Assembly: GCA_025355505.1 (NCBI GenBank)
Contig: JANXZM010000047.1
Location: forward strand, 1 to 41,711
Length of the DNA: 41,711 nucleotides
Origin: Acidobacteriaceae bacterium
GTDB taxonomy: Bacteria; Acidobacteriota; Terriglobia; Terriglobales; Acidobacteriaceae
Direction of reading: 5' to 3'
The notes beneath the pieces were generated by a model, which saw nothing but the letters and a program-made list of their open reading frames with translations, made no database searches and was not told where the DNA came from. This document shows, piece by piece, positions 1,966 through 37,528 of the stretch (position 1 is its first letter; each line of letters opens with the position of its first letter). The position numbers and the translations under genes are program-made.

Positions 1966-4900
1966 ATGCATGGAAGCAACAGTAGTCAACGGACATTGGC
2001 AATCTTAATCTTGAACATCGGCGTAGCAGCACTTTTGCTGCTCACCACTCCCGCCTGGGCGCAGAGCTTCCGCGGATCCATCCGCGGCACGGTAACCGAC
2101 CCAAGCGGCAGCGTAATCGTCGGAGCAAAGGTCACCGCCAAAAATATCGACACCGGACTGCTACGGGAAGCCGCGACCGGCCCGGATGGAGGCTACGTCC
2201 TCGCCGAACTGCCCGCCGGAAAATATACGGTCAGGGCAGAATCAACGGGACTCTCTCCGACTGCACAGAATGTGCAGGTCAGCGTCGGGCTCGACACCTC
2301 CGCCAATTTCGATCTGACCAAGGTGCAGCAGCGTCTGGAGCAGTTGACGGTGACCGAAGATGCGCCGTTGGTGGAAGCGAGTCGCGACGTGCTGGGTGAA
2401 GTCGTGGACCACACGCTGGTTGCCGATTTACCGCTCAACGGTCGGGATTTTGGCAAACTCGTCGCCCTCGTTCCTGGCGCCACGGTCGAGCCGTCGGGTG
2501 TCGCCGCCATTCAGAGCGGATTCGGGCAATTCGCAATTAATGGCAACCGTGACCGCTCCAACAATTACACATTGGATGGTACCGACAATAACGACCCCTT
2601 TTTCAATAATTCGGCACTGAACCAGACGGGCATTGGCGGTGCGCCGGCGTCTCTGCTCCCAATTGACGCCATTCAGGAATTTAACCTGCAGTCCCAATTC
2701 CCCGCTGAATACGGACGCAATAGTGGGTCCGTGGTGAACATCATTACGAGGTCGGGGACCAACCAGATCCACGGTTCGGTGTTCGAGTTCCTGCGCAACG
2801 ACGCGATGGACGCCCGCAACTATTTCAATCGCACTCCCGCTACGAAGAGCCCGTTCCGCAATAATAACTTTGGAGTCTCACTCGGCGGCCCAATCATCAA
2901 GGACCGGACTTTCTTTTTCGGCGCCTATGAAGGCCAGCGCGAGCGTGTTGGCTCGGACTTCGCTCTCCAGGTACCCGGAAACAACCCTTTGCTTCCTGCC
3001 AGCGGCAATGCGCTTCCCAACCAGATCACTGCCGCTCAGACCCTGGTGCAAGGAAACGGAATAACCCCAAGCCCCGCGCTCACTAACATTCTCACCACAA
3101 TTTTCCCAACGGCGACCGGTTTCAACCAAACGGCCGGAACCCTTTCCGGCACTGTCCGTGATAAGAACGATGTCGACAGCCTCATCGCCAAGATCGATCA
3201 TCAGATCACTCCCAGCGAATCCCTTACTGGCCGCTACGCCTTCGCCCGCAGTCAGCAAGTCTTTCCTCTCGGAGGATTGGGATTCGGCGCGGGTTCCCGG
3301 CTAGCTCAGTTTGCCCAGTCCTCGCCAACACGCGTGCAACTCGTCTCGGCCAGCCTGCTCTCCACGTTGAGCCCGGCGAAGATCAACGAAGTGCGCTTCG
3401 GCTATAGCCGCTACCGCACCTCATTCACTTCACTGGACAACGTCGCCCCGGCCAGCTTTGGCACCGCGGGTGTACCCTTCAACATCGGGACGGGAAAACT
3501 CGGCCTTCCTGAAATCGATTTCGGTGGCCTCTTCGACAACCTCGGTTCCAGCGCCTTCAGCATCCCGCGCGGACGCACCAGCCAGAGTTTCCAGATCCTC
3601 GACAACTTCATCTGGCTTAAGGGACGCCACACCATCAAGTTCGGCGGCGAATACCGCCGCGCCTCTATTTCCAGCTTCAACGACAACCTGGAGCGCGGCC
3701 TGTACTCGTTCGGCTCCGATAGCAGCGGTTTCATCATTTGCCCCGCAGCCCTTGAGTGCAACGACCACGGTGCCGTCACGCTAGCCAACTTCTATCTCGG
3801 CAACACCTTCCCACTCGTCAATGCTGGCAACACCCAGCGCAACACCTTCAACAATGGCCTTAGCTTCTTTGCGCAGGATGATTTCCGCGTCTCTTCGACC
3901 TTTACGCTGAACATAGGCATGCGGTGGGAATATTTCGGCCCGCTCGGAGAAAAGCACAACCTGCTCTCAAACCTCGGCCAGGATGGCAATCTCGCCTTGG
4001 TTGGCACCGACGGTTTGAAAGGTGCCTACAATCGCGACTTGAACAACTTCGGCCCGCGAGTTGGCTTCGCCTGGAATCCTTTGCCAAAGACGGTTGTCCG
4101 CGGCGCCTACGGCATCTACCACGACTACATCCCGCAAGACTTGCTGATCGCCAATTTCACCAACTCTGCCGGCCTCGCGACCAACCCGATTGGCCCGCAG
4201 CCTGTGCTCTCGCTCAGCAACTCCTACGATTCCACCGCATGGGACGGCGAGAATCCAACTGGACAGGTTGTCAGCCCCATTCCTCCCCCCTATCCGCCGT
4301 CAGGCGCCGACATCTTCTTCACTCCTCGCAATCTGGTCACGCCTTACGCGCAGAATTGGAATCTGAACGTCGAGCAGCAATTGAGCCAGGCTCTCGCCTT
4401 GCAGATAGGCTATGTGGGCAGTAAGGGAACAAAACTCGTCCGGTTGCGCGATGCCAATCAGCCAGACGTCAACGGCAATCGCCCGAACACGAATTACGGA
4501 TTCATGGATGAATTCGCCACCATCAGCGCATCTACCTATCATGCATTCCAGGCCACGCTGCGGTCACGAAATTGGCGCGGGCTCTCCGGATTCGCCGGTT
4601 ACACGTTCTCCAAATCGCTCGATGACGCTTCCGACGGTATCGACTTCAATTTTGCCACCGTCGCTATCCCGCAGGATTCCAATAACCTCGCCGCCGAGCA
4701 CGGCCCCTCCAACTTCGACACTCGCCACCGTTTCACCGCCGCTTTTTCGTACCAGCTGCCGCGATTCGGCGGATCCAAGCGCCTGGCTGAGGGCTGGGAA
4801 CTTAACACCATTGTGACTGCGCAAAGCGGTCGCCCGGTGCCGATCGTGAACGCCAACGACACCAGCGGCGCGAGCTTCGACCAGTTTCCGAGTCCGTCCA

Positions 4901-7923: not shown

Positions 7924-8808
7924 CTACTGTCCCAGGATCAGCGGCAGCCCGTTCTTGCCGCCGCCGATCACCACTATTTTGGCATTCGGACTCTTGGCCA
8001 GGCTTTCCGTGGCTTCAATGCCTTTCCATTCCAGCAACTGCGCGTTGATGCCCTGCGCCACAATTTGTTGAAAGTCGCGGATGCCTGCGGCTTCAATCCG
8101 TTTGCGCTCGGCTTCCTGCTTTTCTTTTTGCAGCCGGAAACTCATCGCCAGCGATTCCTGCTCCGCTTGCTGCTTGGATTCGATCGAAGCTTTGAGCGTG
8201 GCCGGCAGCTGGATATCCCGGAGCAGGACGCTTTCCACGATGAAGCCGCGCTGCCCCAGAAGATTGAAGAGTTCGTCAAAGATCTGCTTGGCGACCACCT
8301 CGCGCTCGCCGGTGTAGAGGGCGTTTGCCGTGTGCGAAGCGGTCGCTTCACGAATGGCAGCGCGCACGTTGGGCTCGACCAGCACTTCCGCGTAATTGGG
8401 CCCGATTTTTTGGAAAACATCGGCAGCCTTCTCGGGATTGAGGTGGAAAATCAGCGAGGTGTCAAGATTCATCACCAGCCCCTCGCTCGAGGGAACGCTC
8501 GCCGTTTCCTTGATTTCCTGGGTGCGGATGGAGAGTTCGTGATTGGTCTTGAAAGGGTTGATGAGGTGAATGCCTTCGGGCAGAGCCTCGCCCGTGACTC
8601 GTCCGAAAAGCGTCAATACACCAACCGCGCCTGAGTCCACGCGGGCAATGGCGGAAAACAGGAAGACCACAATCAGGAAGCCGATGAAAACCACCCCCAA
8701 AAGACGGGGTAGGGAGCCGCCCTGCATATTGAGGATTCGACCGCCGGGGGGAGGATCGTAGATGGTCATGGCACACTCCTTTTCAAATTGGAATTGTACG
8801 GAAAGCAA
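7924..8808 (-). CDS. SPFH / prohibitin-like (band 7) membrane protein
   Basis: A 294-residue protein with one N-terminal transmembrane helix ('LLGVVFIGFLIVVFLFSAIARV') and an SPFH/Band-7 domain ('GAVGVLTLFGRVTGEALPEG', 'SIRTQEIKETASVPSSEGLVMNLD', 'FDELFNLLGQRGFIVESVLLRDIQLP'). A charged coiled-coil follows (about residues 205-250, KQQAEQESLAMSFRLQKEKQEAERKR), matching bacterial prohibitin homologues. Such proteins oligomerise on the membrane and often modulate FtsH-type proteolysis; no protease gene lies next to it. The ATG at 8808 lies close to an inner ATG (8769) that could be the true start, since it has a possible AGGAG just upstream. Confidence 0.9.
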   Translation of the reverse strand: MLSVQFQFEKECAMTIYDPPPGGRILNMQGGSLPRLLGVVFIGFLIVVFLFSAIARVDSGAVGVLTLFGRVTGEALPEGIHLINPFKTNHELSIRTQEIKETASVPSSEGLVMNLDTSLIFHLNPEKAADVFQKIGPNYAEVLVEPNVRAAIREATASHTANALYTGEREVVAKQIFDELFNLLGQRGFIVESVLLRDIQLPATLKASIESKQQAEQESLAMSFRLQKEKQEAERKRIEAAGIRDFQQIVAQGINAQLLEWKGIEATESLAKSPNAKIVVIGGGKNGLPLILGQ

Positions 8809-9136
8809 TTTGTCGACGTAAGTATCTGGGGGAGGACGGGAGATGGGCTGCGGAAAAAGCAGGATTCATGCGGAGGAAGCGTCGATTTGCACAGTCACAG
8901 TCTGATGTGAGGATGGGACCAAAGCCGAAGATTTCCGCTGAGAATCCGCGACCAACCCCATGGATGCTGTGGATTTCGAAATCGGCTGCCGGCCATTGCA
9001 CAATTTCCGTGTCACCCGCCTGTGCATGAGCTGCACTCGATTGACGAATAAGAAGTTAGAGATGCATGAATTTCGTTGACATAAAAAATGAAAGTGCTAA
9101 AACCATAATCGTTCTTTGACACGTTCTGAAGTTTTT
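8809..9136. other. Intergenic stretch without a supported gene
   Basis: No credible protein gene was found. Reading frames here are short, lack family motifs and are not preceded by convincing ribosome sites. The AT-rich part at about 9040-9120 sits just upstream of the folded RNA element and could hold its promoter, but no clear -35/-10 pair was found. Confidence 0.5.
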
Positions 9137-9434
9137 CCGGTTGGTGCAGCGTCCGGGGCTCGAGCGAAGTCACTCAGACAACCGCGAGGTGAGTTTGGGA
9201 GGGCAAGCAAGGGTCTATAGCTAAGCGCTGGTCGAGGAGAACAAGAGCCTCTGTTGAAGGCAGGATAGAGTCCCGAGGCGTTGAACTGATTTATCCGGTT
9301 GGCGGTGAGCCCGGAGCCCGAGCAAGATCGGCTTACAATGCACCCGCAAGGGAGTTGTAGGAATAAGGTCAGCAAGGGTCTAACGCGAGCTACTGGCCGA
9401 GACGAATGAGTTCAACATCACCTCGGGACTCTCT
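9137..9434 (+). ncRNA. Internally duplicated structured RNA candidate
   Basis: Two diverged copies of a roughly 110-120 nt module lie in tandem: 9137-9246 and 9295-9410. Both begin CCGGTTGG and both contain AGCAAGGGTCTA, then a CTGGYCGAG segment and a purine-rich end. Each has a hairpin with a GNRA loop: ACC-GCGA-GGT in copy 1 and CCC-GCAA-GGG in copy 2, a paired change that keeps the stem. The second copy is enclosed by a long stem: 9267-9278 pairs with 9421-9432 over 12 bp, and 9280-9287 with 9409-9416 over 8 bp. Alternative pairing of 9252-9258 with 9411-9417 is also possible. The strand is inferred from the loop sequences. It might be an orphan relative of HEARO/omega-RNA, but no IscB-like gene is adjacent and I could not confirm the family. 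Confidence 0.5.
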
Positions 9435-9654
9435 ATTTGTACGAGATTGTGGAGCGACGGGCGTCCCCGCCCGTCCAGATTTGTACGAAATTGTGGAGCG
9501 ACGGACGTCCCCGCCCGTCCAGATTTGTACGAGATTGTGGAGCGACGGGCGTCCCCGCCCGTCCAGATTTGTACGAAATTGTGGAGCGACGGGCGTCCCC
9601 GCCCGTCCAGATTTGTACGAGATTGTGGAGCGACGGGCGTCCCCGCCCGTCCAG
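9435..9654. repeat. Five 44-bp tandem repeats with internal hairpin
   Basis: Five contiguous units lie at 9435, 9479, 9523, 9567 and 9611, nearly identical. Each contains the hairpin GACGGGCG-TCCC-CGCCCGTC. Units 1, 3 and 5 have GAGATT and units 2 and 4 GAAATT, so the array looks like an 88-bp unit that was copied. There are no spacers, so it is not a CRISPR array. A 30-bp piece of the unit recurs inside uvrD (19566-19595) with one mismatch, and a related hairpin lies after lexA. The array starts directly where the folded RNA element ends. Confidence 0.95.
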
Positions 9655-9670
9655 CCGAGCAAAGCTCGGC
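9654..9670. repeat. Palindrome GCCGAGC-AAA-GCTCGGC
   Basis: A 7-bp perfect stem with a 3-nt loop directly after the tandem array. The same stem with loop GCT occurs inside the uvrD coding region at 20312-20328, so it is a dispersed element rather than part of the array. Confidence 0.75.
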
Positions 9671-9750
9671 AGCCCGCCGCAAAGTCAGCCTCACCCGCTG
9701 CGGAAATCTCACGGCGGAAACTTCCCGAATGCAACCATCACCGTGGAAGA

Positions 9751-9768
9751 GCGGCCCTTCAGGGCCGC
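9751..9768. repeat. Palindrome GCGGCCC-TTCA-GGGCCGC overlapping the DUF5131 stop
   Basis: A 7-bp perfect stem with a TTCA loop. It overlaps the stop codon of the DUF5131 gene (9759-9761) and is followed by a GGGCTTTAGCCC-type palindrome at about 9788-9799. Together they look like a dispersed composite repeat that now supplies the last residues of the protein. It may also act as the transcript-end hairpin of the cluster. Confidence 0.7.
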
Positions 9769-10649
9769 GTAAGTCCCGAATGAACGCGGGCTTTAGCCCC
9801 AGTGGTCTCGCTTCCACCATAGATTGCCTTTCCCCGCAGCCCGTCAGCCAAACTCCCTTGAAAGCTCTTCCCAAACTCCTCAGCCCAAGCAATACACTCT
9901 GCTCTCTCCGGGATCGGACGAGTAACGCGCTCCGGATACTCATCATATGTCCGCCCATCAAGCACCCGACCGTTCTTAGCCTTCCGCACCCCGCCCCATT
10001 GCTTAAAAAAGAAAGGCACCCCCTGCTCCCGGCATTGCCGACGAATCGACACCACCCATTCCCGCTTCATAGGACGAGCCCCAGGCCCACTCTCCCCACC
10101 CACAATCACCCAAGTGATGCCAGACAGATCGATTTCGCCAAGGTCTTCCAGCAAAGGCTCAATCGACAGGAAGCGAACCTTAGCAGGAGCCTGTCGAAGA
10201 TCATCGATTCGGGGCAATCCATACTTCCGATCCTCAACGCTAACTCCCCACCAGATATTTTCTTGTTTCGCGCCAAATTGTAGTTTCCCACTCAGCAGCT
10301 CCCGCAGTCTCTCCGAGCGCTTGGTCAGAACCTGATACGTGTGCCAGTCAGCCATAGCCATCACCCGCGATACGGCTTCCACATACCCGTCAGGAACCCC
10401 CGGCTGAAACAGATCGCTCATCGAATTGACAAACACCAGCTTAGGAGACCGCCAAGAGAAAGGCTCCGTAAGCTTCTCCAGCACCAGCCGCAAATCAAAC
10501 CCCTGCTCATAAGGATGCCCCTTAACCCCCCGAAACCGCTCCGCAAACGTCTCGGCATAGCAATGCTTGCACCCAGGACTAATCTTGACGCACCCGCGGA
10601 CAGGATTCCAGGTTGCGTCAGTCCATTCGATATGGGAGTTGAGTGACAC
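9759..10649 (-). CDS. Phage Gp37/Gp68 (DUF5131) three-Cys-motif protein
   Basis: A 296-residue protein of the Gp37/Gp68 family. The hallmark is at the N-terminus: 'IEWTDATWNPVRGCVKISPG' then CKHCYAE, giving three Cys in a Cx6-7Cx2C arrangement that recalls, but is not, the radical-SAM CxxxCxxC. Further family blocks are 'FVNSMSDLFQPGVPDGYV', 'YQVLTKRSERL', 'NIWWGVSVEDRKY', 'RFLSIEPLLEDLG', 'WVIVGGESGPGARPM' and 'VPFFFKQWGG'. The molecular function is unknown. The TcmP partner gene ends 4 nt upstream, an arrangement known for this family. The last ~15 residues are encoded by a dispersed palindromic repeat, so the natural C-terminus was probably shorter. A hand-counted line is about 60% G+C, unlike the rest of the cluster. 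Confidence 0.92.
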   Translation of the reverse strand: MSLNSHIEWTDATWNPVRGCVKISPGCKHCYAETFAERFRGVKGHPYEQGFDLRLVLEKLTEPFSWRSPKLVFVNSMSDLFQPGVPDGYVEAVSRVMAMADWHTYQVLTKRSERLRELLSGKLQFGAKQENIWWGVSVEDRKYGLPRIDDLRQAPAKVRFLSIEPLLEDLGEIDLSGITWVIVGGESGPGARPMKREWVVSIRRQCREQGVPFFFKQWGGVRKAKNGRVLDGRTYDEYPERVTRPIPERAECIAWAEEFGKSFQGSLADGLRGKAIYGGSETTGAKARVHSGLTRP

Positions 10650-10653
10650 GTAT

Positions 10654-11550
10654 TTAATCCCAGTGGAATGCAGTTTGATCTGTCCCGTACTTCAATGCGT
10701 CGTCCCACAAATCGAGCGCGAGCTTATTTCGCGAAAACAGAGCGATGTAGTACAGGGGAAGATTCTTTTCGTCCGAACTCACTCGCTTCATCTTATGAAT
10801 CGGTGTTGGCAAGTATCCCAACGTTTCCATACTGGCAGCAAACTCCGATGCTAAGAACTTGGGGAACAATATTGCGTCCGCCTCAGCAATTCTCCATCGA
10901 TCCCTCCACGTGCTTGACCCAAGGAACTGGTCGACCTTGACGGCATCTTCCATCACATACCGCCTGTAAGCCCGGTTCGCATCTGAATAGACGGCCAATA
11001 ACACGATGAAGTCTACCAAGCGAGAGGACAATGTCTTGATCGTGCCGAACTTAAGGCCGATGTCAAACGGATCAGCGAAGCACAGCGTCAGAACAGTGTT
11101 GTCTTTCGATCCTGGAGGGATTTCACCGAGGATATCAGAAGCTCGGAGATCGCAATCTCCTTCGACATACGCGACATTCGCCGTAGGGAAGTAACGCGTC
11201 ACGCGGATTTTCAGGGCTTCAAGATTCTCTGAGATTGCTTCGCAGAAAATGTACTTGTCGAACGGAGGCTCTACGGCAAGGGCCTGAAGCGGGGAACCTA
11301 GTATCATTTTTTGCGTGCCCCGGATTCGGCTATAGCCCGCGCCAGCATAAAGCTCTACATATACACGCTTGTCCCACTTGGCCTTCATTCCCTTCGAAAA
11401 CATGGTTGCGTATAGCGCTACGACCCTGTGCTTGTCCTCAGTCCAGCTGCCGGCCTCTGGACAGATCATGTTGTCGTCGCTCGGTTGTGCGATCTCGTTT
11501 GTCATTGAAGCGGTTTTTGTGTTCGCCTTGTGTTCGCCAACGCGATGCAT
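10654..11550 (-). CDS. tcmP: Three-Cys-motif partner protein TcmP
   Basis: About 298 residues from the chosen ATG, which has GAGAG 7 nt upstream; other possible starts are the TTG at 11583 and the ATG at 11505. Family marks are 'GSWTEDKHRVVALYATMFSKG', 'VYVELYAGAGYSRI' (a Rossmann-like glycine motif as in SAM-dependent methylases), 'ILGSPLQAL', 'IFCEAISENLEAL', 'YVEGDCD', and 'LCFADPFDIGLKF' in the place of a motif-IV-like segment. TcmP proteins regularly sit beside Gp37/Gp68 proteins, as here, but their activity is not established; a nucleotide- or SAM-binding enzyme is a reasonable inference. G+C is lower than in flanking genes (one line counted at 47%), a sign of transfer. Confidence 0.9.
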   Translation of the reverse strand: MHRVGEHKANTKTASMTNEIAQPSDDNMICPEAGSWTEDKHRVVALYATMFSKGMKAKWDKRVYVELYAGAGYSRIRGTQKMILGSPLQALAVEPPFDKYIFCEAISENLEALKIRVTRYFPTANVAYVEGDCDLRASDILGEIPPGSKDNTVLTLCFADPFDIGLKFGTIKTLSSRLVDFIVLLAVYSDANRAYRRYVMEDAVKVDQFLGSSTWRDRWRIAEADAILFPKFLASEFAASMETLGYLPTPIHKMKRVSSDEKNLPLYYIALFSRNKLALDLWDDALKYGTDQTAFHWD

Positions 11551-11667
11551 CTTGATTCTCTCAGACTCTCGGCTCCAACTCAATAGCTCTCAAGGGTACA
11601 GCGGCAATCTTCCCATACAGAATCTCCGAGTAGTGGGCTAGTTCGCAAAAGTTCGCGGGCAAGAAAT

Positions 11668-12405
11668 TCAATCCGCGGCAACTTGCACAGGGACATTAAG
11701 CAAGTCTCTCACAACCCGAATCTCCCGCTCGATGCGTTTAAGCACGACGTCGTTCAGCGGTTCGTCAGGCGCAGCTACCCTGCTCTCTAGTATTACGGGA
11801 ACGTCTTTCGGGATAAGTTGCGCCACCACCTCAAAAGATCTTTCGGCTTCCAGCGAAATTAGGTCGTGCTTGCTTTCTGAATTCACCTCGCTGATGTGCA
11901 ACTCGCAAAGCTTTACGCTGAACTCCTCTAAAATTAGAAACGCTTCGCCCATGGTCGGGTCCACTTGATGGGCATGGCCGACGTCGAAACAAAAGGTCGC
12001 ATCGGGTAGTTTGTCAAAAATCCTCAGAAGGTCTTGGCGGCTCTGGCCGATTGGCTTTCTCTTGTCCATATTCTCAATACAAATCCGCCGACCTAGTCTC
12101 CTCCACAAGTCCCATCTTTGAATCACGTCTGGATGCGTAACAAGCAACCATTCAGATGGGAAGTGCCCGACGAGATTTACAATCTCCTCCTCCGAGCCCG
12201 GGTCAAACGAGCTAGGCAAATGAACGGAAACGTTGGAATATTGACTCAGATCAAGACCGGGAGCAGCCTCGGCTAGGGGCTTCAACTCGGAAAACCGTAG
12301 AGCTGACAATTCAACAGCCGTGGTATCAGTTCGCGCGAGCAGATCCAGAGCCGCCCGGAAATGGCTATAGGCTACTGCTCCCGTTGAAAATCCGATCGGA
12401 CGCAT
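11668..12405 (-). CDS. Xylose-isomerase-like TIM-barrel metalloenzyme (EndoIV/AP-endonuclease-2 fold)
   Basis: About 245 residues with the AP_endonuc_2 / sugar-phosphate isomerase TIM-barrel pattern. Candidate metal ligands are all present: Glu in 'RICIENMDKR', Asp and His in 'TFCFDVGHAHQVD', His in 'CELHISEVNSESKHD', and the last Glu in 'VPVILESRV'. It could be an isomerase, epimerase or nuclease; sequence alone does not decide. The ATG at 12405 is preferred because GGAG lies 9 nt upstream; the ATG at 12420 would overlap the nucleotidyltransferase gene by 14 nt. With 12405 it starts one base after that gene's stop, implying translational coupling. About 48% G+C in a counted line. Confidence 0.85.
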   Translation of the reverse strand: MRPIGFSTGAVAYSHFRAALDLLARTDTTAVELSALRFSELKPLAEAAPGLDLSQYSNVSVHLPSSFDPGSEEEIVNLVGHFPSEWLLVTHPDVIQRWDLWRRLGRRICIENMDKRKPIGQSRQDLLRIFDKLPDATFCFDVGHAHQVDPTMGEAFLILEEFSVKLCELHISEVNSESKHDLISLEAERSFEVVAQLIPKDVPVILESRVAAPDEPLNDVVLKRIEREIRVVRDLLNVPVQVAAD

Positions 12406-12406
12406 A

Positions 12407-13543
12407 TCAAAAGACTCCATATTTCTGTGTTAGCACACTCAACTTTGGATGCTCAAAGAAAATTAGCCTGAGAGCTTCCGAAAACCGCTCGCTACAGTCT
12501 CGCACTTGCCCAAACACTTTATCGTCCCGAGAAACCTCTGCCCTCAATTTCTTCAGATGCTCTCGCTTTTCGGGATCGGCCACCAATCCTAAGAAGTCGT
12601 CATATGCTGAAAATAAGTTTCTGGCAATCGACGTCTCTATACCGTGTTCCCCGACTGCAAGAGCAACGATGTCGAGAGGCGTCTTGCCGACACGCTGCAA
12701 GATATGTTCTTGGAGATGTGACAAATTCCGGGCGCGTGTCGCTTTTATGTCACGCTCGTCCGTGGAAATCTTGGCTTGCAGCTTCTCGTCGAGGTTGCAA
12801 CTGAAGCACGTGACCAGACCTGAAACGAATATCAGTTTTCGGGACATGCTCAGCTTTGCGTTTCTGAGGCCCCAACCCTCGCCGCCTCGATGACGCTGTT
12901 TGCTGGCGAAATCCACTGCCATGGTGCGCCAAAACCTCACGATGTCATTCAGCAGAAATCTCGGCACCTTGAACTGAGCGCCGTTCTTCGTGATTAAGTG
13001 GCGCTCCTCTTCAAGGTATCGCTGGATGATTGCTTTTAACACGCGCTGGTGGGCATTTGTCTCACTTATCGGTAGCGACTCAAGCACCAAAAGAATTCGT
13101 TGAGTGGTGTTCTTGTTGGTGTCGTCCTGACCCCCGATGAGATGGATCAGTTGATGGCTGAAACCCATGTTGCCGAATGTTCCCGTGGCCCCGGGCTCGG
13201 CAAAACGGTATTCCTTCGCGTCCTTACCTTGCCTGCACTCCTTCCTAAGCGCTTCTCGAATATCCTGAGCGATCTGGAAATGACGTGGCTTGCATTGTCC
13301 ATCCACTAGGAAGGTCCAGTCGAGGTCGCTTAGCCAGTCGATCCATTCACTTCGCCCCAAAGATCCGAAGACAACCAGGTTGGCATCTTCTGATGCGAAC
13401 TTCTCACCAACATCCCGCTGTAGAAGGGTGAGAAGGTCTTTTTTTGCCTGCTCGGTCTCTTCGTGCGCTCTCTCGATGTTTTTCCAATTGCAGCCGAGCG
13501 ACGCCGATAACTGAAAAACGGGACGTGATTCCTTATCAACCAT
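12407..13543 (-). CDS. Polymerase-beta-fold nucleotidyltransferase-like protein
   Basis: A 378-residue protein, first gene of the four-gene cluster. Near residue 58 it has 'VVFGSLGRSEWIDWLSDLDW', a GSxGRxE...SDxD nucleotidyltransferase signature of the GlnD/DUF294 type. CD-NTases of CBASS share the general GS...DxD pattern but usually have other spacing. The C-terminal half is helical with 'HLQEHILQRVGKTPLDIVAL' and no family I recognise. It could transfer a nucleotide to a protein or make a small nucleotide signal; no sensor or effector typical of CBASS is adjacent. G+C is about 45% in a counted line, well below flanking genes. GGAA lies 5 nt before the ATG. Confidence 0.72.
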   Translation of the reverse strand: MVDKESRPVFQLSASLGCNWKNIERAHEETEQAKKDLLTLLQRDVGEKFASEDANLVVFGSLGRSEWIDWLSDLDWTFLVDGQCKPRHFQIAQDIREALRKECRQGKDAKEYRFAEPGATGTFGNMGFSHQLIHLIGGQDDTNKNTTQRILLVLESLPISETNAHQRVLKAIIQRYLEEERHLITKNGAQFKVPRFLLNDIVRFWRTMAVDFASKQRHRGGEGWGLRNAKLSMSRKLIFVSGLVTCFSCNLDEKLQAKISTDERDIKATRARNLSHLQEHILQRVGKTPLDIVALAVGEHGIETSIARNLFSAYDDFLGLVADPEKREHLKKLRAEVSRDDKVFGQVRDCSERFSEALRLIFFEHPKLSVLTQKYGVF

Positions 13544-13572
13544 TCGCGTTCCAGAGTATCAGTTTTAGCCCT

Positions 13573-13671
13573 TCACAGCGGTGCATTCCCATGTTTCTTA
13601 GGCAGGTTCGTAGTCTGAAGCATCTCCAGCGCCTGGATCACTTTTTGGGCGTCGCAGCGGAGATCCCGATA
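13573..13671 (-). pseudogene. Remnant 3' end of an acyl-CoA carboxyltransferase gene
   Basis: Read on the minus strand, this stretch ends in ...KVIQALEMLQ...LPKKHGNAPL and a TGA stop (13573-13575). The intact carboxyltransferase gene at 14570 ends ...[10 protein letters not shown]...AKKHGNIPL. Similarity covers about 26 residues and then fades, so this is the relic tail of a second copy or the scar of a recombination. DNA identity is only moderate, so the event is old or the source was a paralogue. Confidence 0.7.
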
Positions 13672-13672
13672 G

Positions 13673-13717
13673 GTACCATTTATGATACCATGTTGATTGG
13701 TTCGCATCTATACCATG
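13673..13717 (+). promoter_or_regulatory. Three TACCAT repeats before the antitoxin-like gene
   Basis: TACCAT occurs at 13674-13679, 13687-13692 (as TACCATG) and 13712-13717, the last running into the start codon at 13715. Repeated short motifs upstream of an HTH antitoxin gene are the usual form of an autoregulatory operator. No clear -35 box was found. Confidence 0.45.
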
Positions 13718-14038
13718 CCTCTAACCCACGATTTCAAAGAAACCATCCAATCCCGCGTACGCCGTGACGCCGCGTTCCGCAAGGAACTCTTGCGCGAAAG
13801 TGTCGAGAGCTTCCTCATGGGAGACATCGAAACCGGCAAGGCCGTCCTGCGCGATTACATCAACGCCACCATCGGTTTTGCCGAACTCGCGAAAGTCACG
13901 CACCACTCTGCCAAGAGCCTGATGCGAATGCTAAGCCCCTCCGGCAACCCGCAGGCACGCAACCTGTTCGAAATTGTCGAGTATCTTCAGCGAAAAGAAC
14001 GAGTCCGATTCAAAGTTGCCGCAGCCGCGAGGGCCTGA
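13715..14038 (+). CDS. HTH antitoxin-like protein (COG3636, HigA-like addiction-module antidote)
   Basis: A 107-residue protein matching the COG3636 addiction-module antidote family: 'RVRRDAAFRKELLRESVESFL', 'GDIETGKAVLRDYINATIGF', then a helix-turn-helix 'AELAKVTHHSAKSLMRML' and 'GNPQARNLFEIVEYLQ'. The ATG at 13715 is chosen because it begins the family's usual 'MPLTHDF'; an upstream TTG at 13697 is unlikely. Members normally pair with a RelE/HigB-type (Gp49-like) toxin encoded just upstream. Here the upstream DNA is only a gene remnant, so it appears to be an orphan, unless the next small gene is its partner. Confidence 0.82.
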   Translation: MPLTHDFKETIQSRVRRDAAFRKELLRESVESFLMGDIETGKAVLRDYINATIGFAELAKVTHHSAKSLMRMLSPSGNPQARNLFEIVEYLQRKERVRFKVAAAARA

Positions 14039-14046
14039 GGAAACAT

Positions 14047-14265
14047 ATGAAAGAGACCGACCGTCCGCCGTTGCTCACCGAGCAAGAGGTCGCCAGTCAA
14101 CTCGACGCTGTGGCCAGCATTCGCCGCGGCCTCGCCCAACGCGAAGATGCCTCATGGCACAGCCTGCGGGGCGCGTTGAAGGAAGTCTTCGCCGAAAACG
14201 GCGGCGGTGAAGCCTATCTTCGCGCCGAGCGCAGCAACTTCCACCCAACAAAAGAGCGCGAGTGA
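14047..14265 (+). CDS. Small hypothetical protein, antitoxin-like helix
   Basis: A 72-residue protein starting 8 nt after the HTH gene stop and so probably co-transcribed. I do not recognise a named family. The segment 'DAVASIRRGLAQREDASWHSLRGALKEVF' resembles the 'I..GL.....G......L..VF' C-terminal helices of small antitoxins, and the protein has no features of a RelE or PIN toxin. It may be a second antitoxin or an accessory protein. Confidence 0.6.
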   Translation: MKETDRPPLLTEQEVASQLDAVASIRRGLAQREDASWHSLRGALKEVFAENGGGEAYLRAERSNFHPTKERE

Positions 14266-14569
14266 GTTGCGCTTGACAACAAGGCCTATAATAAAACTTA
14301 GGTAGCAGCCCAGCGCGGCCGCACCGTGTTTCTACGCAAGATCTTTGAAATCTGTACTTTTTGCGCGGGCTACACCCAATTCCAACTCCCTGATTCTAAA
14401 GGACAGGACAAAAAGCCCAGCCGACAACTCCTTCGTTTTGAATACTTTGAGAGTAACTCATTTTAAATGAATACTTTAGCTAGAAATTGGGGGGGGTACC
14501 GAACCCACGTCGAGCCACGGCGTTTCTGCTCACAGCTCACAGCGTCCGACTATCGACCAGCGACAGCAA
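14266..14569. other. Non-coding stretch between convergent genes
   Basis: No protein gene seen. It holds a TTGACA (14273-14278) and a perfect TATAAT (14287-14292) only 8 nt apart, too close for a sigma-70 promoter. It also holds a repeated TGAATACTTT about 28 nt apart in an AT-rich patch near 14440-14480, and a run of eight G near 14490. The AT-rich composition differs from the flanks and is consistent with foreign DNA. Confidence 0.5.
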
Positions 14570-16120
14570 CTACAGCGGAATATTCCCATGCTTCTTAGCC
14601 GGATTCTTATCCCGCTTGTTCTCCAGCATCTCCAGCGCCTGAATCAGTTTCTTGCGAGTCTCGCGCGGCTGGATGACCGCATCCACGAATCCGCGATCCG
14701 CTGCCACATAAGGATTCGCAAAACGCTCCCGAAACTCCTCAATTTTTTCCTGGCGAGCAGACGAACGATTTTCAGCGCCGTCCAGTTCGCGCTTGTACAC
14801 GATATCCACCGCGCCTTCCGGACCCATCACCGCGATTTCGGCGCTCGGCCAGGCGTAATTCACATCGGTACGAATATGTTTTGACGCCATGACGCAATAC
14901 GCTCCGCCGTAAGCCTTGCGCGTAATCACGGTAATTTTCGGCACGGTCGCTTCCGCAAATGCATAAAGCAACTTAGCGCCATGCCGGATGATTCCGCCAT
15001 ACTCCTGCTGCGTGCCCGGCAAAAATCCAGGCACATCTTCAAAAGTAACCAGCGGAATATTGAAGCAGTCGCAAAAACGCACGAAGCGCGCCGCCTTCAC
15101 CGATGCATTGATATCGAGCGTCCCCGCTAGCATCGCGGGCTGATTGGCCACGATCCCAACCGGCTTCCCGTTGAGCCGCGCAAATCCAACGACGATGTTC
15201 TTGGCATAGTGTTCGTGAATTTCGAAAAAGTAGCCGTCATCCACCACCGTGTGAATCACGTCTTTCATGTCATAAGGCATGTTCGATTGATCGGGAATGA
15301 TCGTGTCGAGCTTCTCGTCCAGCCGATCGATCGGATCGGTGCAAGCCTTGCGCGGCGGGTCATCCAGATTGTTCGACGGAATAAAACTCAACAGCTCGCG
15401 CACCATCGACAAACACTCGGCATCGTCGCGGCACATGAAGTGCGCCACTCCAGAAATTTCGTTGTGAGTGTGCGCTCCGCCGAGTTGGTCTTTCGTGACT
15501 TCTTCATGCGTCACCGTTTTGATCACGTCAGGACCAGTAATAAACATGTAAGAAGTCTGGTCGACCATCAAAATAAAATCGGTGATGGCAGGCGAATAAA
15601 CCGCGCCGCCCGCGCATGGACCCATGATGGCCGAGATCTGCGGCACCACTCCGCTATAAAGCGTGTTGCGCAAAAAAATGTCGGCATAGCCCGCCAGCGA
15701 CATCACGCCTTCCTGAATGCGCGCCCCTCCCGAATCGTTCAGTCCAATCACAGGAGCGCCCATCTTCGCCGCCAGATCCATGATCTTGACGATTTTTGCG
15801 GCGTTCGACTCCGAGAGCGACCCGCCAAACACGGTAAAATCCTGCGCAAAAACAAATATCAGCCGCCCTTCCACGCGGCCGTAGCCGGTGATAAAGCCGT
15901 CACCGTAGTATTTCTGCTCCGCCATGCCGAAATCGTTGCAGCGATGCGTGACCAGCTTATCGGTCTCCTCAAACGTCCCCTCGTCGAGCAGGAAGTCAAC
16001 GCGCTCGCGAGCCGACATCTTGCCCTCTTTGTGCTGGCGCTCACGCCGCTGTGCGCCGCCGCCTTCCTGGGCCATCTGGTCTCGTTTTTTTAGTTCGGCA
16101 ATCTTCTGGTCGAGTTTCAT
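14570..16120 (-). CDS. Acyl-CoA (propionyl/methylmalonyl-CoA) carboxylase carboxyltransferase, beta subunit
   Basis: A 516-residue biotin-dependent carboxyltransferase of the PccB/MmdA family, which moves CO2 from carboxybiotin to an acyl-CoA such as propionyl-CoA. The two crotonase-like halves are visible. The N-half has '[17 protein letters not shown]', '[20 protein letters not shown]', '[14 protein letters not shown]' and '[14 protein letters not shown]'; the C-half has '[20 protein letters not shown]', '[19 protein letters not shown]', '[13 protein letters not shown]' and '[16 protein letters not shown]'. Length is usual. The biotin carboxylase/carrier subunit is not in the window. It may belong to propionate or branched-chain breakdown. 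A relic of the same 3' end lies at 13573. Confidence 0.95.
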
Positions 16121-36381: not shown

Positions 36382-37131
36382 TTATTTCAAGCCCAGCTCG
36401 CCATTGTACTGTTGGGTAATCCCGTAGCACTCGCAGGCGGAGTCTTCAAGTTTCTTGCGGTTCACGATCTTCACTGCGCCACGGGTGTACTCGATGAGCT
36501 GCTCTCTCTGCAAAATACCAGCTGCCAAACTCACGCTAGGTCTATCTGTCCCTAGCATCGTTGCTAGAAAATCATGGGTGATGGGCAGCGACTCTGAATC
36601 CACTCGGTCCTGAGTCATTAGCAACCACCGCGCTAGGCGCTGCTTAATATCGTGCAGCCGATTACAGGCGGCTGTTTGTGCAACCTGCATTCCCTGAACT
36701 ACTGCATAGCGGCTCAACATCAATTGCAGGTGTGGAGTAGATTCCAAAGTGTTTTGCAAAGCTCCGACTTCTACCCGAAACCCATCCCCCGTGATTTGTA
36801 CCACCGATTGAAGCGGACTCCTGCTCAGGCCAACTGCCGCCGGTGTTCCTGTAAAGCCCTCATTGCCAACTATGCCGGCTTCGACGCTCTTTCCATCTTT
36901 CATTGCGACTATAAGAGAAATCAAACCTCGGTTCGGGAAATACGCAAATTCCAGCTTTCCACCCCCCTCGTGAAGAACTAGATGGCTTGGCAAGCTGACG
37001 TATTCGAGATGAGGACGAAGTGAGCTGTAGTCGCTATCGGAGATCGATAAAAGTAGTATGTTGCTGACGGGCTTCCCTGCGGTATTCGTGCGCTCGCCAG
37101 ACTGCACGAATTGGAGGCCTTTACTTTCCAC
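36382..37131 (-). CDS. Crp/Fnr-family transcriptional regulator
   Basis: A 249-residue regulator. The N-terminal half is a cyclic-nucleotide-binding-like beta roll ('HLVLHEGGGKLEFAYFPNRG', 'VEAGIVGNEGFTGTPAAVG') without the conserved Arg-Ala phosphate-binding pair, so cAMP binding is doubtful. The C-terminal winged helix reads 'ITHDFLATMLGTDRPSVSLA', then 'LQREQLIEYTRGAVKIVNRKKLEDSACECYG', as in the acidobacterial 'Crp/Fnr family' group. Its targets are unknown. A palindrome AAACAGG-N3-CCTGTTT lies 50 nt upstream of its start (37181-37197) and could be its own operator. Confidence 0.88.
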   Translation of the reverse strand: MESKGLQFVQSGERTNTAGKPVSNILLLSISDSDYSSLRPHLEYVSLPSHLVLHEGGGKLEFAYFPNRGLISLIVAMKDGKSVEAGIVGNEGFTGTPAAVGLSRSPLQSVVQITGDGFRVEVGALQNTLESTPHLQLMLSRYAVVQGMQVAQTAACNRLHDIKQRLARWLLMTQDRVDSESLPITHDFLATMLGTDRPSVSLAAGILQREQLIEYTRGAVKIVNRKKLEDSACECYGITQQYNGELGLK

Positions 37132-37180
37132 AAACGATCCTTGAGAACTAGGATCACACCCGAAAACTTCCCGTATCCAG

Positions 37181-37197
37181 GAAACAGGAACCCTGTT
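37181..37197. promoter_or_regulatory. Palindrome AAACAGG-N3-CCTGTTT upstream of the Crp/Fnr gene
   Basis: Perfect 7-bp arms about 50 nt before the regulator's start codon on its upstream side. On the minus strand a TATAAT box lies just upstream of it (37225-37230). The position fits an autoregulatory site; the rest of 37132-37441 shows no gene. Confidence 0.4.
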
Positions 37198-37528
37198 TTG
37201 GGGTACTCAAAAAAAATTATACAGTGTTCTGTCAGACATAACGCTTCCGTGGGCTTATCCTACGTTGACTTTACCGCTTGCTGCGCACAAGCATCGCAAC
37301 GCACGAAACGTGAACCAACACGTAAGCGATTCCGCTACTTCAAACGATATCCCAAAATCAGGCGTGCGCACGAACAAAAATCTTCGATGTATGTAGGATG
37401 CCCGACAGACCATCCAAATTGGCAGATGTAAATTTCGCCCTATGGGAAACCACGTTTCGTCCCTCGACGGCAAGCGGGTACCAGGCATGGGGTCGGACGC
37501 CGAATGGGGCGCAGCGACACAGGCGGCC

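What the first reader, a model, noticed from the sequence alone, without database searches (positions are those of the whole stretch)
9759..13543. Four-gene transferred cluster: nucleotidyltransferase, TIM-barrel metalloenzyme, TcmP and Gp37/Gp68
The four minus-strand genes are tightly packed (1 nt between the first two, 4 nt between the last two). Seen: a GSxGRxE...SDxD nucleotidyltransferase; a TIM barrel keeping all candidate metal ligands; a TcmP with a Rossmann-like glycine motif; and a Gp37/Gp68 protein with its three-Cys motif. Known: only the TcmP-Gp37/Gp68 pairing is a described association, and its function is not established. Hand-counted lines in the upper three genes give 45-48% G+C, against about 60-65% in flanking genes. 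The addition of a nucleotidyltransferase and a possible EndoIV-fold enzyme suggests a nucleic-acid-modifying, nucleotide-signalling or defence function (inference).
Basis: partly seen in the sequence, partly recalled or inferred. Interest (0 to 1): 0.82.

Follow-up and report, generated by a model that had tools for sequence, protein, structure and literature searches.

The report
Two defence-candidate modules in one hotspot
Four neighbouring bacterial genes are not one system but two separate two-gene modules, both probably of the anti-virus or toxin-antidote kind, lying side by side at a chromosomal site that related bacteria fill with other genes or leave empty.

Summary
The four genes are real but form two couplets, not one system. 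NTase + TIM barrel match PADLOC candidate PDC-M70; TcmP + DUF5131 match PDC-M41. NTase sequence lies beside the TIM barrel in 75 of 80 loci, TcmP/DUF5131 in 1 of 80. A congener has couplet 1 without couplet 2. The site, beside an accD-like gene, is a hotspot: in congeners it holds RosmerTA, an HNH, PIN or ParE gene, other genes, or nothing.
Couplet 1: a GlnE/DrrA-like nucleotidyltransferase plus an epimerase/EndoIV-fold enzyme with eight invariant putative metal ligands. In 8 of 37 scored genomes the NTase is broken or lost while the TIM is intact; the reverse occurs in none. Distant NTases sit beside unrelated phosphoesterases. Inference: a harmful nucleotide writer with an eraser antidote.
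Couplet 2: DUF5131 stays while TcmP is exchanged in place; TcmP type is independent of DUF5131 lineage. Inference: TcmP is an exchangeable specificity part.
No function was tested.

The parts
12407..13543 (-). Nucleotidyltransferase, 378 aa, PDC-M70A; GlnE/DrrA-like fold; proposed nucleotide writer (harmful if unopposed)
   Evidence: PDLC04778 424.5 bits; AlphaFold2 pLDDT 92.1; Foldseek 1v4a GlnE E 3.7e-4, 6yx5 DrrA E 2.2e-3; G60 S61 R64 E66 S72 D73 D75 in 43 of 43
11668..12420 (-). TIM-barrel enzyme, 250 aa (likely start 12405), PDC-M70B; proposed metal phosphodiesterase, the eraser/antidote
   Evidence: PDLC04779 286.7 bits; PF01261 28.4 bits, under its cut-off; AlphaFold2 pLDDT 95.0; Foldseek UlaE 4e-9, EndoIV 8.1e-7; H67 H96 E116 D146 H149 H175 H185 E212 in 63 of 63
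10654..11583 (-). TcmP, type A, Rossmann-like; alternative start 11550; proposed exchangeable specificity partner of DUF5131
   Evidence: TIGR04474 100.8 bits, cut-off 53; PDC-M41A 68.3 bits; replaced in place by another TcmP in L033
9759..10649 (-). DUF5131 (Gp37/Gp68), 296 aa, three-Cys motif, radical-SAM-like; the constant enzyme of the pair
   Evidence: PF07505 329.5 bits; PDC-M41B 345.9 bits; TIGR04471 85.7 bits, under its cut-off of 355; CX6CX2C in 18 of 18
9441..11669 (.). Stretch with TcmP, DUF5131 and downstream repeats that is absent from the congener contig L032 (G377)
   Evidence: window 9008-9440 matches L032 4294-4727 directly after the L032 TIM stop at 4282; L032 is the G377 contig
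8997..14570 (.). Hotspot: interval between the conserved intergenic block (8997-9443) and the accD-like 3' end (14570), with different cargo in congeners
13572..13653 (-). Degenerate second copy of the accD-like 3' end, just upstream of the NTase
   Evidence: 64 of 89 positions identical to the accD 3' end; similar copies in L033 6623-6708 and L032 2311-2382

Best explanation
The finding is two independent two-gene modules that sit together as cargo of a chromosomal defence/toxin-antitoxin hotspot beside an accD-like gene. Module 1 (NTase + TIM barrel, PDC-M70) most likely works as a writer-eraser pair: the GlnE/DrrA-like NTase transfers a nucleotide onto a cellular target and is harmful when unopposed; the TIM barrel, a metal-dependent phosphodiesterase, removes it; infection would tip the balance. 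Module 2 (TcmP + DUF5131, PDC-M41) most likely has a constant radical-SAM-like enzyme, DUF5131, and an exchangeable partner, TcmP, that sets the target. SHOWN by computation: module boundaries, separate conservation, variable cargo at the site, asymmetric decay of the NTase, exchange of TcmP in place, confident fold predictions for NTase and TIM. INFERRED: the reaction of every protein, toxicity, the nucleotide and target, the trigger, and anti-phage action. Confidence: two modules at a hotspot about 0.85; writer-eraser antidote logic about 0.45; TcmP as specificity part about 0.4. The figure given is for the whole statement.
For: Module 1 alone: NTase sequence beside the TIM in 75 of 80 loci, 26 of 55 full-length pairs overlapping by 1 nt, 2 fused. 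Not joined to module 2: 1 of 80; L032 lacks it. Hotspot: RmrA 1.5e-70 and RmrT 1.6e-18 in G425, HNH in G441, PIN in G407, ParE in G454, empty in G477 and G561; RosmerTA is anti-phage (PMC10440598, passages). Asymmetric decay: both intact 26, NTase broken or absent with TIM intact 8, both decayed 3, NTase intact without intact TIM 0, of 37 scored; binomial p 0.008, or 0.017 one-sided if breakage follows gene length. Unrelated phosphoesterases beside distant NTases: 2H in L009 and weakly in L007, HD in the E. coli plasmid, histidine phosphatase in L031. TIM superfamily includes a nucleotide-loop phosphodiesterase, CbiR (PMC7733943, passages). Module 2: TcmP types need 13 changes on the DUF5131 tree, shuffled mean 12.8; same type in 23 of 71 pairs at 80% or more DUF5131 identity, 13 of 48 without the short L033 fragment, against 0.36 and 0.35 by chance; in-place exchange in five hand-picked pairs.
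Against: No activity of any of the four proteins is known. The asymmetry rests on 8 loci, largely from draft assemblies in which frameshifts can be errors. Foldseek to GlnE and DrrA is weak in detail (TM 0.47 and 0.44, rmsd 8.0 and 9.7), and I could not place a third catalytic carboxylate in the NTase. The best TIM matches are sugar epimerases; the EndoIV sequence match is only E 0.25 and the profile comparison with an EndoIV from a relative was insignificant in probability (1.2%). Four of ten distant NTase loci (L235-L238) show no clear partner. Defence matches among 137 neighbour ORFs at other loci are few and there was no control. Among the five congeners not picked for carrying these genes, two sites are empty and one holds non-defence genes. 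Nothing shows that exchange of TcmP changes a target.
Confidence: 0.45

Rival explanations
1. One four-gene defence system: all four proteins act in one pathway.
For: All four are adjacent on one strand in the window and, with another TcmP, in L033.
Against: Absent as a foursome from 79 of 80 TIM loci, 63 of 80 having at least 2.3 kb downstream; second couplet missing in a congener at the same site; DUF5131 is far commoner than the NTase in the family (67 of 200 against 18 of 250).
Confidence: 0.05
2. Module 1 acts on nucleic acid ends or makes and degrades a nucleotide signal: the NTase adds nucleotides to tRNA/RNA ends or makes an oligonucleotide, and the TIM barrel trims it.
For: Weak profile similarity to Cid1 poly(U) polymerase (E 0.006) and to PADLOC oligonucleotide cyclases (E 0.0016); 2H and DnaQ-like partners beside distant NTases can act on RNA or oligonucleotides (2H chemistry in PMC5512222, passages).
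Against: By fold, GlnE and DrrA rank above Cid1 (0.064) and CD-NTases (about 0.2 and above). It shares the writer-eraser logic and differs in the target only.
Confidence: 0.3
3. The TIM barrel is a sugar-phosphate isomerase/epimerase and the couplet is metabolic.
For: Best Foldseek hits are UlaE and other epimerases; one relative is annotated as sugar phosphate isomerase/epimerase; one distant NTase sits in a glycosyltransferase/MFS cluster.
Against: H67, H96 and H185 are invariant in 63 of 63; H185 aligns with an EndoIV His, the other two by order only. Patchy distribution, asymmetric decay and the hotspot site do not suit metabolism.
Confidence: 0.12
4. TcmP is not a specificity part: types are exchanged merely because the locus recombines often, or because TcmP is a selfish or toxic gene that DUF5131 tolerates.
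For: The site is a hotspot where other genes are exchanged too, also beside DUF5131 without TcmP in G425 and G441.
Against: Exchange stops at the TcmP borders while DUF5131 and the upstream flank stay in five pairs, and a TcmP of some type lies beside 41 of 51 DUF5131 loci in any orientation.
Confidence: 0.35

Closest known systems
PDC-M70 (PADLOC-DB 2.0.0 phage defence candidate)
   Same: Both parts match, 424.5 and 286.7 bits, in the same order.
   Different: Nothing structural; PDC entries are candidates from guilt-by-embedding, not tested systems (PMC10855318, passages).
PDC-M41 / PDC-M30 (TcmP + Gp37/Gp68 candidates)
   Same: DUF5131 matches M41B and M30B at about 345 bits; TcmP matches M41A. 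Type B is M41A, type C is nearer M30A.
   Different: The window TcmP is a divergent M41A (68.3 bits); exchange of TcmP under one DUF5131 lineage is described here.
DarTG (toxin writer with eraser antitoxin; recalled)
   Same: Proposed logic: a modifying toxin and an enzyme that reverses it.
   Different: DarT is an ADP-ribosyltransferase and DarG a macrodomain; none of the Pfam matches here is of those folds.
GlnE / DrrA adenylyltransferases
   Same: Closest solved folds to the NTase; GSxxRxE...SDxD type active site.
   Different: TM 0.47/0.44 only; partner TIM barrel is unlike the known de-AMPylating partners (recalled).
CbiR and endonuclease IV (AP endonuclease 2 superfamily)
   Same: Fold, and conserved His/Asp/Glu positions; CbiR hydrolyses cobamides to Cbi-P and alpha-ribazole (PMC7733943, passages).
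   Different: 26.9 bits against the CbiR cut-off of 105; AP_endonuc_2 28.4 bits against 31.1.
RosmerTA
   Same: Occupies the same chromosomal site in congener G425; toxin-antitoxin with varying toxins on one antitoxin type (PMC10440598, passages).
   Different: Unrelated proteins: RmrA has an IrrE-type peptidase and HTH domain.

Membership tests
PDC-M70 | NTase matching PDC-M70A and TIM barrel matching PDC-M70B, adjacent | tested here: met
   424.5 and 286.7 bits, adjacent
PDC-M70 | Anti-phage activity | not testable with these tools
   no experiment; candidate status only
PDC-M41 | TcmP (M41A) next to DUF5131 (M41B) | tested here: met
   68.3 and 345.9 bits, 4 nt apart; TIGR04474 over its cut-off
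Single four-gene system | The four genes recur together | tested here: not met
   1 of 80 loci (L033) besides the window
CD-NTase / CBASS | CD-NTase fold match and a CBASS effector | tested here: not met
   CD-NTases at E about 0.2 and above by Foldseek; PADLOC cyclase model 15.9 bits; no effector among the neighbours scanned
GlnE/DrrA-type adenylyltransferase | Fold and active-site motif | tested here: inconclusive
   E 3.7e-4 and 2.2e-3 but TM 0.47/0.44; motif invariant
GlnE/DrrA-type adenylyltransferase | Adenylyl transfer to protein | not testable with these tools
   needs an assay
Toxin-antitoxin system | Antidote retained when the toxin decays; toxin not found without antidote | tested here: met
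   8 against 0 of 37 scored genomes; small numbers, draft genomes
Toxin-antitoxin system | Toxicity relieved by the partner | not testable with these tools
   needs an experiment
Endonuclease IV (nfo) | Match to the family and its metal ligands | tested here: inconclusive
   no nfo match reported for the window protein; six ligand positions align (E 0.25), two by order; ligand identities recalled
CbiR | Score over the NCBIfam cut-off | tested here: not met
   26.9 against 105 bits
Radical SAM superfamily (DUF5131) | Three-Cys cluster motif and family match | tested here: inconclusive
   CX6CX2C invariant in 18 of 18; TIGR04471 85.7 bits under its cut-off of 355; no solved relative by sequence

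The most novel reading that the evidence does not exclude
PDC-M70 is a toxin-antidote/defence class in which the toxin is a GlnE-type nucleotide writer and the antidote is whichever phosphodiesterase reverses it: an EndoIV-like TIM barrel here, 2H, HD or other phosphoesterases beside distant relatives, so that unrelated folds have filled the eraser slot several times. Beside it, TcmP-DUF5131 is a defence pair whose target-setting subunit is exchanged in place like a specificity cassette while the radical-SAM-like enzyme stays constant.
Probability: 0.3. Interest if true: 0.8.

Novelty: new member of a known kind. Interest (0 to 1): 0.57.

Why it matters
Both couplets belong to listed candidates for which my searches of the open-licence library found no functional work. 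The results turn them into testable models: a writer-eraser toxin-antidote pair, suggested by which gene decays first and by unrelated phosphoesterases beside the same NTase family; and a constant enzyme with an exchangeable partner, as expected if TcmP meets a changing target. The accD hotspot gives natural alleles and two empty sites for comparison.

Tried and rejected
Four-gene system: rejected. CD-NTase: not favoured. Viral carriage of module 1: scans of IMG/VR with NTase and TIM alignments found pattern matches but no relative by tblastn; the distant E. coli plasmid NTase has no match among phage records; the window NTase itself was not run against phages. Plasmid carriage: 4 records match the NTase, 3 the TIM. 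Defence-island test: of 349 ORFs within 4 kb of the pair in 76 of the 80 loci (four Sorangium near-duplicates left out), 137 were sampled and scanned with PADLOC at 1e-15; no family matched more than 2, and those shown are mostly type I specificity subunits; 25 of 106 families are shown. A far set of 135 ORFs was listed but not scanned, so there is no control. TIM tree: 10 phylum changes, minimum 4, shuffled mean 13.5: not used as proof of transfer. G+C as proof of transfer: NTase, TIM and TcmP are only some 4-9 points under the flanking genes measured, and DUF5131 is within their range. Wider search for NTase partners: a second phylum search mostly returned known loci. Literature: no paper found on the function of PDC-M70, PDC-M41 or DUF5131; the library has open-licence papers only, listings were capped, and one RNA-repair review I looked for was not held (one search opened an unrelated paper by a wrongly recalled DOI).

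Rows dropped before counts. Decay count: G721, G610 and G760 (NTase cut by the contig end) and G647 (NTase start cut) were not scored; G320, G604, G634, G649, G688, G776 and G796 have only distant-type NTases and no TIM match; G286 (both genes broken) is outside the two samples. Of the 26 'both intact' genomes five were re-scored; the others rest on the tables. DUF5131 tree: 6 of 51 loci left out (L033 short; L119, L128 too near a contig end; L123, L154, L159 divergent); of the 45, 16 have no TcmP upstream and carry no label. One search includes L033, whose DUF5131 is only 69 aa; one search repeats the count without it. One search compared ten hand-picked pairs: five show exchange with a conserved upstream flank; two are same-type pairs, one has no TcmP on one side, and two (with L115) match in DUF5131 only. 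Hotspot: G569 not scored (contig ends in accD); G407 is placed by 81 bp of the accD end on a separate contig; G377 has proS, not accD, beyond the accD fragment.
Full report
1. What is there. The window is a whole 41.7-kb contig of a 4.16-Mb assembly; its nearest named relatives are Acidobacteriota MAGs. Profiles name them: NTase = PDC-M70A, TIM barrel = PDC-M70B, TcmP = TIGR04474 and a divergent PDC-M41A, DUF5131 = PF07505 and PDC-M41B. PDC entries are phage defence candidates from guilt-by-embedding (PMC10855318, passages). G+C is lower than around, but less so than claimed: 51-52% for three genes, 56% for DUF5131, 55-60% for the flanking genes measured.

2. Two couplets, not four genes. A scan of one genome per species with a TIM alignment found 133 relatives, of which the best 80 loci were kept. 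NTase sequence lies immediately upstream in 75 of 80: 55 full-length, 2 fused to the TIM, 10 split into two ORFs, 8 partial (some at contig ends); 5 have none. The commonest spacing is a 1-nt overlap, 26 of 55. TcmP or DUF5131 appears in 1 of 80, L033; 63 of 80 have at least 2.3 kb downstream. L033 has the closest TIM (94%). L032 (78%), which is the contig of congener G377, has NTase-TIM and then directly the sequence that in the window follows DUF5131. DUF5131 is common: 67 of 200 genomes of the family, against 18 of 250 for the NTase. Six plasmid DUF5131 loci that I picked from a listing of 406 matching records (Leptospira, Pseudomonas, Methylobacter, Hymenobacter, Streptomyces, Nocardioides) all have TcmP beside it, in three arrangements.

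3. A hotspot. Ten sites were read between the accD-like 3' end and a conserved intergenic block, nine in the window's genus by handle and L033 by about 85% DNA identity: window, NTase-TIM-TcmP-DUF5131; L033, the same with another TcmP; G377, NTase-TIM only (with proS beyond an accD fragment); G425, RosmerTA plus DUF5131; G441, an HNH gene plus DUF5131; G454, a ParE toxin and an HTH protein; G407, a PIN-domain protein; G320, DUF2961 and a protein of Pfam family PF00144; G477 and G561, no gene-sized ORF apart from a 115-aa ORF across the accD end in G561. The first five were found through these genes themselves. The last five come from six congeners I chose without knowing the site; G569 could not be read. 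Of those five, two hold toxin- or nuclease-type genes, one other genes, two nothing. RosmerTA is an established anti-phage system (PMC10440598, passages). Module 1 lies at another site in congener G467, and on rhizobial plasmids beside an AbiEii-type gene or near SIR2 and ATP-binding genes. At other loci the defence signal is weak: in 137 sampled neighbour ORFs no PADLOC family matched more than 2, without a control.

4. Module 1, folds. AlphaFold2 models are confident (pLDDT 92.1 and 95.0). The NTase is closest to the GlnE N-terminal domain (E 3.7e-4, TM 0.47) and DrrA (E 2.2e-3, TM 0.44); the defence NTase HalB comes at 0.13 and CD-NTases at about 0.2 and above. The TIM barrel matches the epimerase UlaE (4e-9) and endonuclease IV (8.1e-7). 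H67, H96, E116, D146, H149, H175, H185 and E212 are identical in 63 of 63; six of them align with EndoIV residues in a weak match (E 0.25) that I recall as metal ligands, two are placed by order. CbiR, of the same superfamily, is a metal-dependent cobamide hydrolase whose products are Cbi-P and alpha-ribazole (PMC7733943, passages).

5. Which gene goes first. To avoid the bias of a TIM-first scan I searched the same genomes with each profile: 250 of the family and 314 of the class (some genomes are in both). Of 37 scored genomes: both intact 26; NTase broken, TIM intact 6 (G409, G467, G301, G733, G740, G744); NTase absent, TIM intact 2 (G412, G802); both decayed 3 (G329, G549, G434), the NTase reduced to a remnant; NTase intact with TIM broken or absent 0. 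Two-sided binomial p 0.008 for equal odds, one-sided 0.017 if breakage follows gene length. This is what a harmful gene with its antidote should show; small numbers and draft assemblies limit it.

6. Partner replacement. Ten loci with distant NTases of this family (PDLC04778 E 1e-18 to 1e-27) were read for neighbours. L009 is followed by a 2H phosphoesterase (PF13563 1.7e-9, over cut-off) and L007 by a weaker match (0.005, under cut-off); L189 by a protein with a weak 2H-type match (0.08) and an Eco57I methylase domain; L008 and L234 follow a DnaQ-like exonuclease; L235-L238 show no clear partner; L191 is a fragment. On plasmids, the E. coli NTase follows an HD-domain gene and the Rhizobium one precedes a histidine phosphatase within a glycosyltransferase cluster. 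So unrelated phosphoesterases or nucleases often, not always, take the neighbouring place.

7. Module 2. In 51 DUF5131 loci, 49 from the family search plus L033 and the window, a TcmP lies upstream in 30 (types A 11, B 14, C 5) and in another orientation or downstream in 11 more, some by weak matches. Types A, B and C are distant homologues (hhalign 97-99%, 16-26% identity). On a tree of 45 DUF5131 the types of the 29 labelled rows need 13 changes, as many as shuffled labels (mean 12.8, as low in 133 of 200). Of pairs with at least 80% DUF5131 identity 23 of 71 share the type (0.32, chance 0.36); without the short L033 fragment 13 of 48 (0.27, chance 0.35). DNA comparison shows exchange in place: window/L033, L112/L113, L158/L138, L158/L161 and L125/L151 keep an upstream flank and DUF5131 while no DNA match is found across TcmP. 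A constant enzyme with a freely exchanged partner fits a specificity part and argues against a tightly co-adapted toxin-antidote pair; both are inference.

8. Verdict. The four-gene claim fails. The defence suspicion is strengthened by the site. The couplets are members of listed, uncharacterised candidates. Writer-eraser and exchangeable specificity are the models I would test first, each at somewhat under even odds.

Noticed in passing
window 9387-9700: Head-to-tail G+C-rich repeats (unit with GGGCGGGGACGCCCGTCGCTCCACAAT) directly downstream of DUF5131, whose last residues run into a repetitive-looking stretch; parts recur in congeners.
   Followed up: no
window 13572-13653 and 14566-14655: Degenerate second copy of the accD-like 3' end just upstream of the NTase, also in L033 and, beside proS, in L032; possibly a trace of integration at the gene end.
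   Followed up: partly
window 13697-14038 (+): Small gene with weak addiction-module-antidote and phage-repressor matches between accD and the NTase; 89% identical stretch at the same site in G425.
   Followed up: partly
window 7924-8808 (-): Band_7/SPFH gene next to the hotspot is absent from the corresponding place in G441 and G477.
   Followed up: no
L189 2453-3928: In congener G320 a distant NTase is followed by one ORF with a weak 2H phosphoesterase match and an Eco57I-type DNA methylase domain.
   Followed up: partly
L064 8915-10714 and L087 8756-10729: NTase and TIM barrel form a single ORF, a natural fusion of module 1.
   Followed up: no
L165 (E. coli plasmid pISHS7_5, 4,499 bases): A tiny plasmid whose annotated cargo is an HD-domain gene and a distant NTase; 1 of 5,426 E. 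coli genomes covers most of it.
   Followed up: partly
L052, L066, L076, L084, L106: TIM barrel without any NTase sequence found nearby; solitary erasers or remnants.
   Followed up: partly
window 36501-37500: A second dip in G+C (50.8%), as low as the finding.
   Followed up: no
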